Assembly: GCA_944381155.1 (NCBI GenBank)
Contig: CALWKA010000004.1
Coordinates: 1-64,000, forward strand
DNA from: an uncultured Clostridia bacterium
GTDB lineage: Bacteria; Bacillota; Clostridia; Christensenellales; UBA1242
Reading direction: 5' to 3'
DNA: 64,000 nucleotides
Both the position numbers and the translations under genes were made by a program. Shown in pieces: positions 1,217 to 21,100 of the stretch; positions within the stretch are counted from its first letter, which is position 1, and every line of letters starts with the position of its first letter. Under the pieces are notes generated by a model. It saw nothing but the letters and a program-made list of their open reading frames with translations, searched no databases and was not told where the DNA came from.

Positions 1217-2494
1217 CTACGCGCTGGGAATTTCATCTAATAGCACTCCACTGTCTTCTAATATTTCCATTAAATTGCTAAAATCTGACAAAATTAAATC
1301 TTTGACTTGTTTATAATCTGGACTATCCGTGCTACCAACATTGATATATTTATCTTTTATACCTGTGCCATCGTCTATCGTTCCGCCCATAGATGAATAA
1401 TATCTAGCGGACGGCTCAATCAAACCTGCGTTTATAAGTTCGTCCATACTGCTCTCTTCAAAAGCGGTTGACAATGCTTGAGCTAAATTTGTAAGCGTCA
1501 CGCCATCATCAATCAATGATAACGCGCCTACAGACAATTCTTCGCTTGTGAATATGTCAGATATCTTCAAATTGGTTACGCTTTCGGATAGTTCTCCAAT
1601 CTTGAAATCTGCAAGTGTATTCATCAATTTGCTGACTTCATTTCCGTTTTTATCTTCGTAAATACCATCGCTGTCTTGATCTTCATAAGTCAATAGTTGC
1701 GCCACCGTCAATCCTTCAATTGCCTGACCTAATCCGCTAATTTGTGTCGAATCGGATATATTGTCAAAGAATGCTGGCAAGGCGATGTTGTATTCATCTC
1801 TCAACTCACCTATCGTGATTTTGGAATCAATATGAACTGAAATTGAACTGATAGCCTCGTTCAATGGAATATATCGCAACGCAACTTTTACTTGATTCGA
1901 TGATAGCGGAAAATCATAATCTTTGATGATTACACGCGATCTTGCTAAATCTATTGAATAATCAAATTCCACTGCTTCATTGAAGTCCGCGTCTTTATAC
2001 AGTTTCATATCTACCATATTAAAATAGTAAGTGTTAGTTTCATTAAGAATACTATCAATTTCAGTCATATCAATCACATTCTTTAATTCTTCTGCACTGA
2101 TATTTGATAGTTTATTTTGAAGTGCGTCCACAAGTTTTGGTAAAGGAACATCTTTCAAATCAGTTATATTTATGCCCACTATCTCGTCTTTGATCTCTAT
2201 ATCAAAATCTGATTGCAAATCATTCAGAGTATAACTATCAATATTTTGTGACAAATTGATTGCGTGCGTGACAAATTTATTCAATGTCAGATTGTTCAAA
2301 TCATCATTGCCTAAATCTAACTCGGTGTGAAATTTGTCATTTATCCAGTTTGGTGACGCTTTATAATAAAATAATGCCACGATTCCCGCTATCGCCGCTA
2401 TGCCAAATAGCAAGCCTATCAGCGCACCAAAGAAAAACGAACCAATTGATCCATTTCTGGACTTTCTTTCAATTTTCCCTATTTGTCTACTCAT
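1217..2494 (-). CDS. membrane-anchored extracellular protein with repeated short L-rich motifs
   Basis: A 425-residue protein of no family I recognise. A short basic, Ser/Gly-containing N-terminus is followed by one membrane span (about residues 18-42) with no cleavage site, so the roughly 380-residue remainder should lie outside the cell. The outer part repeats a short motif of hydrophobic-Thr/Lys-hydrophobic-x-(D/E)-L type at least eight times (for example YTLNDL, INITDL, ITIGEL, FKIGEL, LKISDI, VTLTNL). It also holds an acidic DQDSDGIYEDKNGNE stretch resembling a calcium-binding D-x-D-x-D-G loop. The start is supported by GGGG five bases before the ATG. The anchor layout is the same as in the giant protein at 12-23 kb, suggesting a shared surface system. 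Function unknown. Confidence 0.8.
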   Translation of the reverse strand: MSRQIGKIERKSRNGSIGSFFFGALIGLLFGIAAIAGIVALFYYKASPNWINDKFHTELDLGNDDLNNLTLNKFVTHAINLSQNIDSYTLNDLQSDFDIEIKDEIVGINITDLKDVPLPKLVDALQNKLSNISAEELKNVIDMTEIDSILNETNTYYFNMVDMKLYKDADFNEAVEFDYSIDLARSRVIIKDYDFPLSSNQVKVALRYIPLNEAISSISVHIDSKITIGELRDEYNIALPAFFDNISDSTQISGLGQAIEGLTVAQLLTYEDQDSDGIYEDKNGNEVSKLMNTLADFKIGELSESVTNLKISDIFTSEELSVGALSLIDDGVTLTNLAQALSTAFEESSMDELINAGLIEPSARYYSSMGGTIDDGTGIKDKYINVGSTDSPDYKQVKDLILSDFSNLMEILEDSGVLLDEIPSA

Positions 2495-2802
2495 ATTTAC
2501 CCCGTTTATAGTATTATGGCATAAATTACATTAAAAATAAAACGATTTCTTATGAATTTTTAAAAATATTGATGAATTTTGTTGTTTTAAGTATCAATTG
2601 ACACTCAAAAATTGTTGTGATTGATTATATGATTATTTTGCTGTGAAGTCTATTTTTTTAATATAAAAGGCGGAAGTGCGTTTTCAACGCCAACCGCCCG
2701 TCTGGGCGGTTCAAACGCTCGTTCGAGCGTTTACTTCCGCCACCCCTTCCCTGTCAATTTAAACAAAAAAATAAATTATTGCCAAGCAAACAATGAACAA
2801 TA
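2495..2802. other. spacer holding the cloverleaf
   Basis: This 308-bp spacer lies between two minus-strand genes. Apart from the cloverleaf at 2669-2741 it is plain AT-rich sequence with no reading frame of note. The part next to 2494 should contain the promoter of the downstream surface-protein gene, but I could not pick out a clear -35/-10 pair. Confidence 0.5.
2669..2741. other. GC-rich perfect cloverleaf (four-way junction) element
   Basis: A 73-nt block, GC rich in an AT-rich spacer, folds without mismatch into a closing stem and three hairpins. The closing stem is GGCGGAAGT (2669-2677) with ACTTCCGCC (2733-2741). Hairpin 1 is GCGTT/AACGC (2678-2690), hairpin 2 is AACCGCCC/GGGCGGTT (2692-2711), and hairpin 3 is AAACGCTCG/CGAGCGTTT (2713-2732). 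Junction gaps are 0, 1, 1 and 0 nt. It is not a tRNA: there is no T-loop, no anticodon-loop layout and no CCA. On the minus strand a short T-run (TTTTATATT) follows the closing stem, so it might act as an elaborate terminator for the gene ending at 2803. Alternatives are a structured RNA, a recombination site or a REP/MITE-like repeat. Confidence 0.85.
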
Positions 2803-3792
2803 TTAATTCAGCAAAAGTGAATTATTAAGAGGCTTATAAAACTCCTCTAATATCTTCGGAAAATATTTTCTTAAAGGCACATCCTGTTTTTCATATTCTT
2901 TCAATGCCTGTAAAACTGCGCGTGTGTGGATAAATCCTATATCCTCCTCTTGCTTTATTAGAGTCTCTTCATATTCCTCACCATAGAGATTATTTGAATA
3001 TAAAATTGTCGTACAACGAATAATTTGTTCATTGACATAAGTTGATATGGATCCATAGGCTAAATTTCGCATTTTTTCTTTCACTTCATCGGGGAGTGGA
3101 GGCATACGCCTAGCATCGAAATACTTGTCAGTGAGCGGATTGATCAATGGATGAGAAAATTCGTGTTGAATAAGGTCTAAATTTTTTTGTGACAGAAAGT
3201 ATGGCTCCAGTTTGTTTTCAGAAAATTTTGCACCCAAATTGCAAATACTCTGATCGCCATTTTCCACTGCATAATTGCAGTGTGTTTGAAGAGGCATAAG
3301 GTTTATAATATAATCACGTTCCAATTTTTCTTTGTAGAAATTATCCATATAATCAAGCAAATTTTCATCTACTTTGCTCTTCGTGTCTTCAATCCATTTT
3401 TGATACACCCGTGTATGTTTTTTATAAAATTCATCATACTTGGAGTCGATTGTAAAATTTCTAATTTCTTTTATGAATTCAAGGACTTTAGGACTCCTAC
3501 CTAAACGAGTTTCAAAAGGATATTTCAACAACTCATTGATACTAAAATCAGAGTTTAATTGCCACATTAACGCAATAGGTGCATCATAATTAAAACTCAA
3601 TTCGTGGATAATTTCAGTTAATAGTTTCACAGCCCTATGATTTTTGTACTGTGAAAAATAATTCTTCACATCCACAGCATAATCAAACTCGGTTGGCACC
3701 CTTAATTTCGGAATGCGGTCAAAATAATCTGTCAATGTGAGCATTATCTCCATAATCTCGGTACGTTTGTCTAAAGTATATTTGATTTTCAT
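2803..3792 (-). CDS. DUF4932-like putative zinc metalloprotease
   Basis: A 329-residue protein without signal peptide or membrane span, so probably cytoplasmic. An HEFSH motif at residues 210-214, in the context IQHEFSHPLINPL, is the HExxH zinc-binding signature of metallopeptidases, and Glu254 (in TYVNEQII) is a candidate third ligand. The sequence around the motif resembles the DUF4932 family, whose members carry a conserved HExxH followed by a hydrophobic-Asn stretch; this assignment is from memory of the family pattern. Residues 1-200 look mainly helical. GGAG lies 13 nt before the ATG, a rather long spacing. The gene stands alone between two spacers, and its substrate is unknown. Confidence 0.7.
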   Translation of the reverse strand: MKIKYTLDKRTEIMEIMLTLTDYFDRIPKLRVPTEFDYAVDVKNYFSQYKNHRAVKLLTEIIHELSFNYDAPIALMWQLNSDFSINELLKYPFETRLGRSPKVLEFIKEIRNFTIDSKYDEFYKKHTRVYQKWIEDTKSKVDENLLDYMDNFYKEKLERDYIINLMPLQTHCNYAVENGDQSICNLGAKFSENKLEPYFLSQKNLDLIQHEFSHPLINPLTDKYFDARRMPPLPDEVKEKMRNLAYGSISTYVNEQIIRCTTILYSNNLYGEEYEETLIKQEEDIGFIHTRAVLQALKEYEKQDVPLRKYFPKILEEFYKPLNNSLLLN

Positions 3793-12186: not shown

Positions 12187-15100
12187 AAACACTGCGATTT
12201 ACTATAATGCTAAATTGCAGTTCGTGTTGAGTTCCAAACGCGTTTCCCGTGGTTAGAGTGAGCACAATTTCAAGATGATTTTCACTAGGATAATCTGCAA
12301 AATACTGCTCCACTTCCGCTCGATTCAATACAATCTCTCCTGTATAGACATTGTTGTTCGATTTAATTTCGCTAATATAATTAGTGTTATTCTCGACTAT
12401 AGAAGATATTATTTCTTTATTGTCATCAGTCAATGCGACCAACACACCATCAGAATCATATACATTCAAATAGTCCCCTAATATGTTGACAGGAATTTCT
12501 CCGTCCGCTGTTAGCGTAGTTTCAACATAAGGATATTCAGGAAGCTGGAAGTCCACTCTGAAAGTTAAGTCAACACCTTTATATTTAACATTATAATTCA
12601 AAGTCAATGCTGTTTTGGTTGGATTGTCACGCTTGTATTTTCTTAATGTCTCTTTTGTTACAGTAATTGCCAAAGAATTTTCATCACTATAACTTTTTCC
12701 TTCTGCTTCCACTTCTTGTATACTACCCAAAACATCCGAACCCGAACCTGTATATGGAATCTTTGTAAATGCTCCACCAACATTTTGATATGTGGCAAAT
12801 TTTCCAATTAAATCCAATACAGCAGGGTCTGAATTGTGGGTGTAGTTTACTTGGAAGAAGTATGATTGAATATTCGTGCCATAGTCTACTGTAACTATTG
12901 GACTTGATGTTATTGCATAGTATTTATCAGTAGTCAAATTGTATAATAGATCAGATGAACCACCTGTAAAGGTTAATTGTTGTAAATTGTATTTTTTGCC
13001 ATTTACATCGATTGCACCAACTGAATCACCAAGTTCATCAACACTATTAGCATTGTTTGCCCAATTAGAATTTGGAGTTCCCGCTCCTACCACAATATAG
13101 TCTAGGTATGAAGTACTATCGCATTGAGTAGGCAGGAATATATCTCGCACTCTGAATTGTCCTTTTGGAACTATAGCTTCAGTAGTGGTCAATTTGAATC
13201 CAAGATTTGTATCCGCGTCATATTTTTCAATATGGACAATTGGATTTCCACTAGCCATTACATCGAGATCTGCAATCAATTCATTGTTAAACAATTTACT
13301 ATTAGGATAGTCCGAACCCAAACCTGAATTGATTTTCGGATCTGATAGATCAATTCCAAACCCGCCATCGCCAATATAAATCAATTGATAATATATTTCA
13401 GAATAATCAGTGCTAGTAAATCCTGTCATATCAGACAATCTCACGCTTTCCACTGAATTTATAAATGTATAGAAATTGTCTATATTTGAATATTCACTGC
13501 TGAACACCGAACCATTAATAATGCTTCCAGTTACATCAAACTCTGCGTTATAAGTGGTAGTTGATCTATTCGCTGTAAATGATGTGCCACCAGGAAGCGT
13601 GATTGTATACACATAGTTGTTTGAAGTGATGGTCATTCCATTTTTATAATTAGTCGTACTATTTCCGTCTCTTTCATATGGACCATTCCCATTCAGATAT
13701 GCCACGATTTCCTTATCTTCATTTAGACGCAAAATGACTTCATCATCACCACTAGTGGATTCATATCTTTCTTCATAATAGAATAAATCTAACAGATATT
13801 CACCAGACAGATCATTGTCAACATCCACAATGGTGAAATCGCTATTCACATTCACGCTAGCGCTATTGTACACTTTGTATGTGACATAATAATTATCTGT
13901 GGTTTGACCTAAATAGGTGAAAGACAATCTGTATATGACATTATAATAATCATAATTTGGTCCGCTAGACTGCGCCACGCTTGGCAAGGTTAAGCTAGCA
14001 ATATTTGCAGTAAGGATAGCATTGATAACATCATTAGCAAGCGTTACACTATATGCGCTACCAGCATTAAACAATTGATCCGCATCAATAGTTTCTGTGA
14101 ATGGCACCACTACATAATCTACCGTTATCTCGCCCATAGCAAAGTTGTTGGCAATTGATGGTGTTTCAAGCAATGTTCCATTAGTGTCTGACATAATTAT
14201 ACCGGTACCATCCCCTGAAGAAGAATAAATAATATCCACACTTTCTCCAGACGCGAACGCTTCACCGCTAGTGTGAGTCAAGATTCCATTTTCGCCTGTA
14301 GCCGATCTATATTGTAAAGTTACGAAGCCCAACACATTGATATTCCAATAAATCGTATATACGCCATTTTCACGCAAATTGATATTAAGGCGAAGGATGA
14401 TCAAGCCTGAAAGATCTTTTTTGAAAGTGAGATTTAATCCGTCAATCGTGAAATAACCTGTACCCCAACTAGACGATTCTGTGATAGACACATTGTTTGT
14501 ATCCGTAATTTTCCTATTTGAGCCATCCGCACTATACAATTCAAGCATCAAATCAGTATTGTAGTTTTCTGCGTTGTATGGAATGATCGTGTTTCTAGTT
14601 TCAAATCTAGACAAATCTTCACTGTATGGGAAGTCTCCAGAATTAAGTTTTTCTGAAGTCAAGAAGATATAATTTGTATAGAAATCGTCATATCCGCTAG
14701 AAATTGGACTGCCATTCACCCTAAATTCAAAGTTTGGACGCAGGGTGAAGTTGTATTGAATGTACCCTATGAAATATCCTCCTACTGCCACATTGAATAT
14801 TAGATTGACATTGATGTTTACCCCAACCGCTTTGGTCATAATAAGGTTGGAACTAGCGTTTTCACCATAGTCGAAAATGTTGTTGTTTGTATTCTGAATA
14901 TAATGCCTATTTCCAGAAATCATATAGCTACTTGCGCCTTCGCTATTTCCTGTCACAAGTGTAGCATTGCTCAACGAGATAGATGCGTTCTTTGCATTTG
15001 ATGTGATAGCTATCTTTTGAGAAAGGTCTATATAATTTCCTGCATATATAGAATCATAATTCGTATCAAATTCGCTTTCAAGTGAATAGTTGAAAAATTT

Positions 15101-18100: not shown

Positions 18101-21100
18101 TTGCCTATTCTTTATCTGTAAATCGCGCTTAAATTCATAACTTTTCCCGTCATTGTAAGTGATAGTATATGTGATAGTAATAGTGGCACTATTCCCATCA
18201 ATTTCATTAATCACTGCGTACGCTCCGTTGTTCTCGCCATTCATATATCCGCTACCCAAAAATGCTGTATCTGCAAATATAGAATCGTCGCTCACCCCTG
18301 TCACTAAAATGGAAGTTATAATAGTATTGTCTTCCAAATCATTTAGTAAATCTTTCACATTGTACAGTTTATTCAACAGATCAAACGCATTTGAAGAATT
18401 CCCGGAATATGCCTCTACATTATTTTCTTCATCTGGGGCTAATGGCAAAAGTCTAACACTGAACTGCGTATCCGAAGCGGTTGAATAAATTAGTTTCTTT
18501 CCACTTCCTTCATCTTCAAATGTGAAAATCAGCACTACATTATCATAAATTTGCTCCAAATTGGTGATTAATTTGAATGTGTTTTCATTTGTATTAAATT
18601 CTACCCCTTCAATATCCGTTTGTAACGAAATAAGTTTAAATTGCGTATTATCTGCGATATTTATAAATGAATTATATCTGATATTAGACATTATATTATA
18701 AATATTATCCACATAGTTCGGAATGCCTGTATCTTCTGTACCTCTAGAAATTTCGTAGGCATTTTTCAATGTAACCTGTGTTTCGAGCAAGTCTATGCTT
18801 CTATCCGCATTATTTACTTGATAACTATAACTAATTCTAATATTTTCAGTCAAGCTTTCGCCTATGTTCTCTATCCAACCAATGCTGAATTTATTTTCAT
18901 CCAAACTGATGATAGTGCCAGATTGTAGAGTTAAGTCAAGATTGGTATAATCAGTATAGTCTACAAGATAGGTGTCTGTCTGGGGATATATCCCCACACC
19001 GGATAAACCATAAACTACACCCGTTTTGAAACTCTTTAAGCTAACAAATTCGCTATAATCATAAGTTTCTCCGCCTTCAAATTCGCTGGCAACAATTTGC
19101 GCTATCACATTAGGCAAAACGGTTATTGTGTATGACGCGAGTTCAGAGTCATTATATAGGAAACTAAATCTATATGTTCCTACTTCACTAAATGTATAAT
19201 TTATATTTGTAGGAGATTGGCTATTATTTATATCTACCTGGCAAGTTATGGAGCCTTCATCGGTTGAATTTTTTATCCCAAACACAGGATTATTCTTTGA
19301 AGTTTCTGTATCGCTATATTCTTCGTATAGCAACACGGTAGTACCCGCGTAGAATTTTTCCCAGTCTGAATTGAAATTAATTTCAATACTTGAAGTGAAT
19401 GTCAATTCAAAACTAATAGTTTCATTCGTCTTCACATTGATATCAAAACTTATTACTAGCACAGCATACAGATAATTTACGCGTGTAAACTTCCAAGAGT
19501 TGTCCACATTCTCAATTTTTAGCACTATATATTCGTCTGTGATAGAGCCGTCACCCGTGATGTTATAATCTGGTTCCATTATATAGATATTGCCTTCATT
19601 TTCGACAACTTCTAATTCGCTATTTCCCCCAAACTGAACTACATCAACATTTTCTAATGAAACAAATTGTGAATTCGTAATCAAATCAATGTTTGTACCG
19701 CTATCATTATATGTGTATGTTATATAGTCACTTAAATTCACACTCAGTTCTTCCGTTTCACCCGTGCCTAATCTAGTTATGTCTGTTAGGGTGAAAGCAC
19801 TTTCTTCATTGTATTGTTTAGACACCACTGATATAGCAAAATATCTAATGATATCATCGCAACTAACAGTCGCTACCGCTTTGCCTATTTTCTTGATTAT
19901 CAAATTGTTATTTTCTTCATCAAAGTCCACTATGCTAGGAGAATTTGACGAATATGATATATTTTTTTCAATGCCTGTTATGGCTGGCAAAACTTGGAAA
20001 CCTTCTTCAATCGCCCCGCTTGAAGATGAGTTGAAAAGTTTGTCGCTTAACTCGGTTGCCAAGATTTCTTTTCTAATATTTTCGTCAACTATAAAATATG
20101 TATAAACATACCCACCATCTTGTGTTGAATATGAAATTTCTACTTCAATATAGAATGATGAACTCTTTGCATCATCTGGAGTTTGTGCTAATGAAATTGT
20201 TCTCACTTGATCCGTATCGTCAATTTTATATTTGAATTGTATATTTGTTGCCATCGTGCTCTCAATGTAAATTTTGCTATCTGTAATGATTTGCAAATCA
20301 TTATATTCTAGCACAATTTTTAAATATGAATCTCTATTTGATAATGCACTATTGCTATTATATCTCAAAATTAAACTATCCGCACTAAAATCTAGACCTT
20401 GGACATCTAATGCGTTTGAATTCTCTGAAACTAATGTGTCTGATGAATTGTACATATTGATATGCACATTTTCAATGTCAAATCCGCCAGCATTAAATAT
20501 ATTCTTCAGCATATTTGGCACATTTGAACTTATTATTAGTAAGTGCTCGGCAGTATTTTCCACCACATATACATCTCCGTCACTGATACTTATAAACTGA
20601 TCTCCTTCTGGATCGTTATCCCCATTCTCAGATCCTGGATTGTAATTGAACGATATTTCATCTGTGATCAAAGCGTAATCCACATTGATTGTCACGCGCC
20701 TAGCGTCAGTTATGTAGCTATTGACCACATCTGCTATCTCTTCCACATCTTCATATCTATTGGCAAGACAAACATCCCCGTTATTTTTTGAAACCGATTC
20801 AAAAGTACAAATATAATCTTCATTGCCAATTGTCACCACCAATTCATTATTGACCACTGCTACATTGCTAATGTTCGCACTGCCATCTGTTAATGTTGCA
20901 TTCAACCCTTCATCGTCTATTGTAACATTCAGATATCTTCTATTGACTTCTCCTTCAACTTCTGTCATTTGAATAGAATATCTCAAAACAATATTGTTTG
21001 ATTCGTTTTCCAAAACTGATTGAATGTATTCATCTGTTGTTTGATTATATTCATTTCGCAACTGCAACATGTATATAGGAGTACCCGAATTTTTTGCACC

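What the first reader, a model, noticed from the sequence alone, without database searches (positions are those of the whole stretch)
2669..2741. Perfect 73-nt GC-rich cloverleaf in an AT-rich spacer
Four stems of 9, 5, 8 and 9 bp without mismatch close around a junction with only 0-1 nt linkers. The element is far richer in G/C than its surroundings and lies outside any gene. It matches no RNA family I know (not a tRNA, not an attC with core sites). Such a compact four-way junction might be a recombinase or transposase substrate, a palindromic repeat family of this genome, or a structured RNA. It is the strongest unexplained structure in the window.
Basis: partly seen in the sequence, partly recalled or inferred. 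Interest (0 to 1): 0.75.

Follow-up and report, generated by a model that had tools for sequence, protein, structure and literature searches.

The report
Cloverleaf DNA repeat family in Clostridia
The window holds one copy of a family of short DNA elements, scattered in relatives, that keep the same perfect three-armed cloverleaf fold while their letters change almost freely, which suggests that the folded shape is what is conserved.

Summary
The cloverleaf is real: stems of 9, 5, 8 and 8 bp, with no equal in 1.54 Mb of Markov copies of the window or 1.54 Mb of random 62%-GC sequence. It is single-copy in its genome by BLAST but not a chance relic. Two sister species have it at the same place, with loop changes and a compensatory pair. 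Relatives carry a dispersed family with the same architecture: outer stem of about 9 bp, three perfect arms, 3-4 nt loops, few linkers, largely different letters. I catalogued 50 in 17 genomes; 49 fold with exactly three arms. All 30 aligned pairs show double changes. G-T pairs are 0.8%, against 7.5% in terminator-like hairpins. Copies cluster near stop codons; 14 of 39 have a T-tract. Y1 transposase, reverse transcriptase, consistent target duplications, REP tags and attC cores do not explain them. Best reading: a REP/MITE-like element class conserved by fold rather than sequence, probably kept perfect by hairpin template switching plus selection, sometimes doubling as a terminator. What spreads it is unknown; function is untested.

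The parts
2669..2741 (.). cloverleaf element (four-way junction with three hairpin arms)
   Evidence: same place in G005 and G028
2669..2677 (+). outer stem, left strand, 9 bp with 2733-2741
   Evidence: fold
2733..2741 (+). outer stem, right strand
   Evidence: fold
2678..2690 (+). arm A, 5 bp stem, 3-nt loop
   Evidence: fold; identical in the three species
2692..2711 (+). arm B, 8 bp stem, 4-nt loop; loop differs in G028
   Evidence: fold; alignment
2713..2732 (+). arm C, 8 bp stem, 4-nt loop; one base pair changed on both sides in G028, half-changed in G005; loop differs in all three species
   Evidence: fold; alignments
2742..2755 (-). G-rich lead just 5' of the element on the gene strand; over 39 gene-sense copies the nearest 10 nt on that side are 32% G
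   Evidence: sequence
2660..2668 (-). T-rich tract (7 of 9 T) directly after the outer stem on the gene strand; possible terminator tail
   Evidence: sequence. The simple terminator scan, which looks for single hairpins, found 0 here
2803..3792 (-). upstream gene, DUF4932 protein (PF16286); its stop lies 61 nt before the element
1217..2494 (-). downstream gene, 425 aa protein without Pfam match; membrane-like N-terminal segment read by eye

Best explanation
The 73-nt cloverleaf is one copy of a dispersed, non-coding DNA element family found in this bacterial family. What defines the family is a fold: an outer inverted repeat of about 9 bp closing three perfect hairpin arms at a compact four-way junction. 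(Shown:) members recur at many loci with shared outer stems and partly shared arms, some persist at orthologous places, and both sides of base pairs differ together with very few G-T pairs. (Inferred:) the element folds as DNA, as a cruciform or in single-stranded DNA during replication. Template switching inside the hairpins copies one arm onto the other, which would keep stems perfect, change pairs in one step, and replace or invert loops; selection or the spreading process keeps the three-arm junction. (Inferred:) copies spread and land next to gene ends; where a T-tract follows, as at the window copy, the transcript of the element can act as a terminator or 3' end block of the upstream gene. 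What spreads them is not identified.
For: Family: 33 places of one outer-stem pattern in 9 of 34 genomes of the genus (own included), 0 for the reversed-pattern control. 80 matches of nearly the same pattern in viral contigs gave 0 perfect three-arm folds, against 33 of 34 catalogued elements with that stem. Model R1, built from one element, gave 23 matches at 17 places in 73 loci, and all 17 are in the finder's list. Architecture: 49 of 50 catalogued elements have exactly three arms; loops are 3 nt (73) or 4 nt (62) of 147. Covariation: 97.4% of cells paired, 30 of 30 pairs with double changes, score 0.861 against 0.157 in shuffles. DNA rather than RNA: 13 G-T of 1632 pairs in 49 elements, against 57 of 765 in 81 terminator-like hairpins of the same stretches. 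Spread: best-arm similarity at non-orthologous places 0.345 within and 0.205 between genomes, 0 of 1000 label permutations as high; two near-identical copies 2 kb apart in G001 with different flanks. Gene ends: 24 of 41 within 30 nt of a stop codon; in 29 of 36 tandem gaps the median position is 8% from the stop side, KS 1e-7. T-tract in 14 of 39 against 40 of 468 control windows. Local hotspot at the window copy: 9 of 73 differences from G028, against 0 of 240 substitutions (one indel) in the spacer and 1 of 994 upstream. One orthologous loop exactly inverted, GCA in G014 and TGC in G015. Published support for the mechanism: PMC8794818 (abstract and opening lines), PMC8604942 (passages).
Against: The element is not a hotspot everywhere: three G014/G022 orthologous pairs differ by 1/74, 2/66 (one indel) and 0/78, no more than their flanks. 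25 of 39 gene-end copies lack a T-tract, and 8 of 48 copies lie between divergent genes, so termination is not a general role. No consistent target duplication; Y1 transposase and reverse transcriptase do not track the element; so mobility rests on copy distribution alone. The alignment was fitted to the structure and holds both strands of most elements, and one of its five measures, further pair types, does not exceed the shuffles (87 against 85.1; 175 of 500). The finder and its energy threshold favour perfect pairs and so lower the G-T count. One-sided changes do occur in orthologues: one half-changed pair in G005, one in G028's outer stem, one mismatch in G022. The inverted loop is 1 of 27 loop comparisons, many of them identical, and could be chance. 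Own and G028 share a nearly identical stretch next to a diverged gene, which suggests recent exchange, so their divergence is not a clean clock.
Confidence: 0.6

Rival explanations
1. Multi-branched intrinsic terminators: each cloverleaf is simply an elaborate terminator hairpin of the upstream gene, evolved in place and kept by selection on the RNA.
For: 20 of 41 copies lie within 11 nt of a stop codon or overlap it. 14 of 39 have at least 6 T in the first 9 nt, the window copy included. In G013 a plain terminator with the same T-tract lies exactly where G007 has a cloverleaf.
Against: 25 of 39 lack the T-tract; 8 of 48 lie between divergent genes, about the share of such gaps (54 of 281). 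At the L052 and L055 places the element follows a complete ordinary terminator, read by eye. G-T pairs are about nine times rarer than in terminator-like hairpins. Shared outer stems and arms at unrelated loci do not fit in-place origin.
Confidence: 0.2
2. A substrate of a structure-specific recombinase or transposase (cassette-site-like or REP-like), with the folded single strand as the recognised form.
For: Fold conserved over letters, GC-rich, just 3' of genes, as recalled for attC sites. Arms more alike within genomes. At one orthologous site the arm order is reversed between G014/G022 and G015 (read). Two of 45 elements have direct repeats of 7-8 nt near the ends, rarely reached in shuffles (4 and 0 of 200).
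Against: Y1 transposase in 7 of 34 genomes of the genus, only G032 and G005 among the 12 with a catalogued element. Reverse transcriptase in 8 of 34, only G014 and G028 among the 12. attC-like core pairs in 1 of 45, REP tags in 1-4 of 45, no consistent target duplication. Other recombinase and transposase families were not searched.
Confidence: 0.3
3. A structured regulatory RNA or a promoter element of the downstream gene.
For: A promoter-like pair of boxes (10 of 12 matches) on the - strand starts inside arm A; 5 such sites in the region against 2.1 in shuffles. In the trio both half-changed pairs would be G-U on the + strand and A-C on the - strand.
Against: No Rfam match. The neighbouring genes differ among the fetched loci. 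G-T pairs are nearly absent. 31 of 34 genomes have a relative of the downstream gene, and most loci read there lack the element.
Confidence: 0.07
4. Chance or decaying element of no significance.
For: Single copy in its own genome by BLAST; of 99 genomes (own included) only G005 and G028 have another full-length match.
Against: 0 in 3.1 Mb of model sequence; fold kept through change in the trio; a dispersed family with the same architecture.
Confidence: 0.03

Closest known systems
REP elements (GTAG and CGTC palindromic repeats; PMC3733652, abstract start in listings and passages)
   Same: short palindromic repeats in intergenic space, subfamilies with alternative complementary stem letters; CGTC REPs also seem to lack a dedicated transposase
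   Different: REPs are 20-40 bp hairpins ending in GTAG or CGTC, and that paper says GT pairing was often seen; these are three-arm cloverleafs of 66-121 nt, without the tags and with few G-T pairs
Double-hairpin elements and GC clusters of mitochondrial DNA (PMC2800124 and PMC4478555, passages)
   Same: hairpin-forming elements scattered in spacers, unknown mover, changing sequence under a fold constraint
   Different: single or double hairpins in organelles; here three arms closed by an outer stem, in bacteria
MITEs (features recalled)
   Same: short, non-coding, dispersed, ends are inverted repeats
   Different: no consistent target-site duplication, no parent transposon identified, internal letters not conserved
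Integron attC sites (features recalled; search listing only)
   Same: variable letters, conserved fold, just 3' of stop codons
   Different: core-site pairs in only 1 of 45, few bulged bases in the folds, single copies dispersed rather than in an array
Intrinsic terminators
   Same: place after the stop codon, T-tract in about a third
   Different: branched fold, few G-T pairs, found also without T-tract and between divergent genes
Parvovirus terminal hairpins (recalled, no call)
   Same: branched palindrome with arms that can flip
   Different: here chromosomal, dispersed and with three arms; no virus was examined for this

Membership tests
REP (GTAG/CGTC) | GTAG or CGTC tetranucleotide at the foot of the hairpin | tested here: not met
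   GTAG 1, CTAC 4, CGTC 4, GACG 1 of 45 elements with 8 nt flanks, counted anywhere in the stretch
REP (GTAG/CGTC) | single hairpin of 20-40 bp | tested here: not met
   three arms in 49 of 50, length 66-121 nt in 45
REP (GTAG type) | associated Y1 transposase (RAYT) | tested here: not met
   PF01797 in 7 of 34 genomes of the genus, 2 of the 12 with a catalogued element
MITE | terminal inverted repeats | tested here: met
   outer stem of about 9 bp, GGGGCTT-type in many
MITE | target-site duplication | tested here: not met
   abutting direct repeats of 5 or more nt in 0 of 45; with offsets 0-5, two cases of 7-8 nt, above shuffles
MITE | related autonomous transposon | tested here: inconclusive
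   only Y1 and RVT_1 families were searched
integron attC | paired core sites RYYYAAC / GTTRRRY (motif recalled) | tested here: not met
   both present in 1 of 45
integron attC | integrase and cassette array | not tested
   no integrase search was made
intrinsic terminator | GC-rich hairpin followed at once by a T-tract | tested here: inconclusive
   met at the window copy (7 T of 9) and in 14 of 39 in all; not in the other 25; the simple scan found none at the window copy
intrinsic terminator | transcription ends there | not testable with these tools
   no transcript data
Rfam RNA family | match at the curated score | tested here: not met
   only the 16S fragment in the window
tRNA | ARAGORN call | tested here: not met
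   none in the window

The most novel reading that the evidence does not exclude
A class of selfish DNA whose inherited identity is a shape: a four-way junction with exactly three arms that replicates, spreads and repairs itself by fold (template switching plus a structure-reading, sequence-blind host or element enzyme), so that letters drift freely while the cloverleaf persists, loops and arms flip, and the copies are used as gene-end structures.
Probability: 0.35. Interest if true: 0.9.

Novelty: new variant of a known kind. Interest (0 to 1): 0.72.

Why it matters
Repeat families are usually found by sequence similarity; this one is largely hidden from it and was met through its fold. If copies are kept perfect by template switching, the family is a natural laboratory for how compensatory base-pair changes arise without wobble intermediates, an open question in RNA and DNA evolution. 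If a structure-reading enzyme moves them, it would be a new kind of mobile-DNA recognition. Either way, gene ends in a small bacterial genome are being remodelled by branched DNA.

Tried and rejected
Weak BLAST hits of 14-28 nt: the five fetched ones (L004-L008) did not fold as cloverleafs and were dropped; the rest were not examined. Rfam, tRNA, phage and plasmid searches gave nothing for the element. Y1 transposase and reverse transcriptase were tested as movers and do not track it. Target duplications were tested. A tRNA control for G-T pairs failed because no tRNA was parsed; terminator-like hairpins serve instead. One search stopped with an error after its first lines; one search repeated it without G013:C26, whose best fold is not three-armed.

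Counts to handle with care. The 50-element catalogue was put together by hand from pattern, finder and model hits and is not a random sample; it includes orthologous copies; the stretches of G015, G007, G001, G055, G106 and G138 were partly chosen to contain known hits. Left out of it: the G196 element at a contig end, a two-arm GC-rich stretch in L088, and the model matches G001:C4:55844, G001:C17:12315, G032:C38:1912 and G371:C90. The last was not confirmed by the finder; the other three were not examined. Tandem-gap statistics use 29 of 36 rows; seven were dropped because an ORF call overlapped the element, and three of those seven would have gone against the stop-side bias. Nearest starts lie within 30 nt in 11 of 45, nine of them overlapping ORF calls. 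The T-tract count uses 39 of the 41 gene-end copies (two G055 copies left out); by my own recount the 14 fall to about nine sites when orthologous copies are merged. In one search the double-change counts for own-G005, G005-G028 and C1 are register artefacts and are not used. The phylum search (0 of 398) held no genome in which the model is known to match. The shuffled control gave 35 hits, two of them three-armed, without printed energies; one search is the control used. In one search, 9 of 29 loci were not read because the gene motif was not found.

Full report
What is there. Window 2669-2741 holds a 73-nt cloverleaf: an outer stem of 9 bp, arms of 5, 8 and 8 bp with loops of 3, 4 and 4 nt, and two unpaired bases at the junction. 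It folds about equally well on both strands and as DNA. A strict finder sees it once in the window and never in 1.54 Mb of Markov copies or 1.54 Mb of 62%-GC random sequence. It lies 61 nt after the stop of a DUF4932 gene and 174 nt before a 425-aa gene, all on the - strand. It matches no Rfam family, tRNA, phage or plasmid record at the thresholds used.

Same place in sister species. BLAST finds one copy in the own genome at E <= 0.001. Of 99 genomes searched (own included), only G005 (97%) and G028 (88%) have another full-length match, both in the same genus and at the same gene junction. Two named records carry these loci: uncultured Clostridia MAGs BRZ_AM bin38 and BRZ_PF bin51. Own and G028 differ at 9 of 73 positions in the element, at 0 of 240 in the spacer (one indel), and at 1 of 994 upstream (Fisher p 1.4e-6 against the spacer). 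Six of the nine changes lie in the two 4-nt loops, two form one compensatory pair, and one makes an outer pair G-T on the + strand (A-C on the - strand). G005 shows the half-changed state of the compensatory pair.

A family. Reading the same gene junction in other species, I saw a different perfect cloverleaf in G014. A finder run over the fetched loci then showed three more in other species. A pattern for their outer stem gave 33 places in 9 of 34 genomes of the genus and none for the reversed control. Fourteen of the 15 places first fetched fold as a three-arm cloverleaf. A sequence-free finder showed the window element alone in 424 kb of the own genome, 9 in 399 kb of G015, 5 in 198 kb of G007 and 7 in 191 kb of G001 (two-arm and AT-rich hits, one weak hit in G001, and two hits that I read by eye as a tRNA are not counted). 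Other genera of the family have elements with other outer stems: G055 has 4 in 80 kb, G106 1 in 40 kb, G138 1 in 35 kb; there were none in six 20-kb stretches of G005 and G028 or in 20 kb each of six further genomes. Covariance models matched 11 of 198 genomes among relatives (R2), 13 of 309 of the taxonomic family (R3), 4 of 396 of the order, one of them in another family, and 0 of 398 of the phylum. The models lean to the GGGGCTT-type stem and miss the window copy with default filters, so these are lower bounds. With filters off the window copy scores 30.6 bits on the gene strand.

Architecture. Of 50 catalogued elements 49 fold with exactly three arms; loops are 3 nt (73) or 4 nt (62) of 147. 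On 57 aligned rows (55 distinct; both strands of most elements) 97.4% of cells are standard pairs, all 30 pairs have double changes, and the covariation score is 0.861 against 0.157 in shuffles and at most 0.144 when slid; the number of further pair types does not exceed shuffles. This alignment was fitted to the structure. G-T pairs make up 13 of 1632 pairs in 49 elements and 57 of 765 in 81 terminator-like hairpins of the same stretches.

Spread and persistence. Best-arm similarity at non-orthologous places is 0.345 within genomes and 0.205 between them (0 of 1000 permutations). G001 has two near-identical copies 2 kb apart with different flanks. Orthologous places with remodelled arms were read at the nucleoside-hydrolase gene (cloverleaf in G007, G014 and G015 of 20 loci read), beside the Smr-like gene (G007, G025), and at another gene end where the arm order in G015 is reversed relative to G014/G022. 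One of 27 orthologous loop comparisons is an exact inversion (GCA and TGC). Against a general hotspot, the three G014/G022 pairs diverge no faster than their flanks.

Place. Of 41 copies next to a gene 3' end, 24 lie within 30 nt of the stop codon, median 16. In 29 of 36 tandem gaps the median position is 8% of the gap from the stop side (KS 1e-7; orthologous copies are counted apart, and three of the seven dropped rows would go the other way). At least 6 T in the next 9 nt is seen in 14 of 39 gene-sense copies against 40 of 468 control windows. G013 has a plain terminator exactly where G007 has a cloverleaf, with the same T-tract. But 8 of 48 copies lie between divergent genes, and two lie just after what I read as a complete terminator.

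How it most likely works. Shown: fold conserved, letters not, double changes, dispersal, gene-end bias. Inferred: hairpin template switching in DNA keeps the stems perfect. The abstract of PMC8794818 says that template switching can create perfect stems and fix pairing, and passages of PMC8604942 that it homogenises inverted-repeat arms and inverts spacers; both fit the data here. Unknown: what spreads the copies. Y1 transposase and reverse transcriptase do not track them, and there is no consistent target duplication; other enzymes were not searched.

Known or new. REP repeats (PMC3733652, passages), mitochondrial hairpin elements (PMC2800124 and PMC4478555, passages), MITEs and attC sites each share some features and fail others (membership table). 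I saw no description of a three-arm, fold-conserved bacterial repeat family in the listings of nine library searches, two of which returned nothing; the library lacks most subscription papers. One listed paper, PMC3017870, reports long intergenic palindromes in Blochmannia (passages); those passages do not speak of branched ones.

Noticed in passing
L045 (G032), spacer before the relative of the 425-aa gene; L097 (G015) 14701-14822 and 19667-19772: Another GC-rich repeat type with TGTCATCC..GGATCT-like letters sits in spacers, once in the same gene junction where G014 has a cloverleaf.
   Followed up: no
about 2500-2545, upstream of the 425-aa gene, and the same place in many of the 28 loci read: A T-rich block (TTTTATTTTT) followed by a TG..CATAATA-like box recurs across species and may be that gene's promoter, without a clear TTGACA-like -35 box.
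   Followed up: no
L010 against L009 (own and G028): About 1.2 kb with most of the DUF4932 gene and the spacer is 99.9% identical apart from the cloverleaf, then the downstream gene differs by 15%: a recombination boundary close to the element.
   Followed up: partly
2660-2687, - strand: A promoter-like pair of boxes (10 of 12) begins in arm A and ends in the T-tract; the same letters are kept in G005 and G028.
   Followed up: no
2591-2604: A 14-nt near-palindrome GTATCAATTGACAC lies in the spacer and is kept in G005 and G028; possible operator.
   Followed up: no
L134 (G014) and L137 (G025): Two elements on opposite sides of the same Smr-like gene, in two species, share one identical arm, as if copied locally.
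   Followed up: partly
L165:8404-8517 (G055), L168:8379-8499 (G138): Arms with long or nested inserts inside the cloverleaf.
   Followed up: no
1-435: The window starts inside a 16S rRNA gene on the - strand, at a contig end.
   Followed up: no
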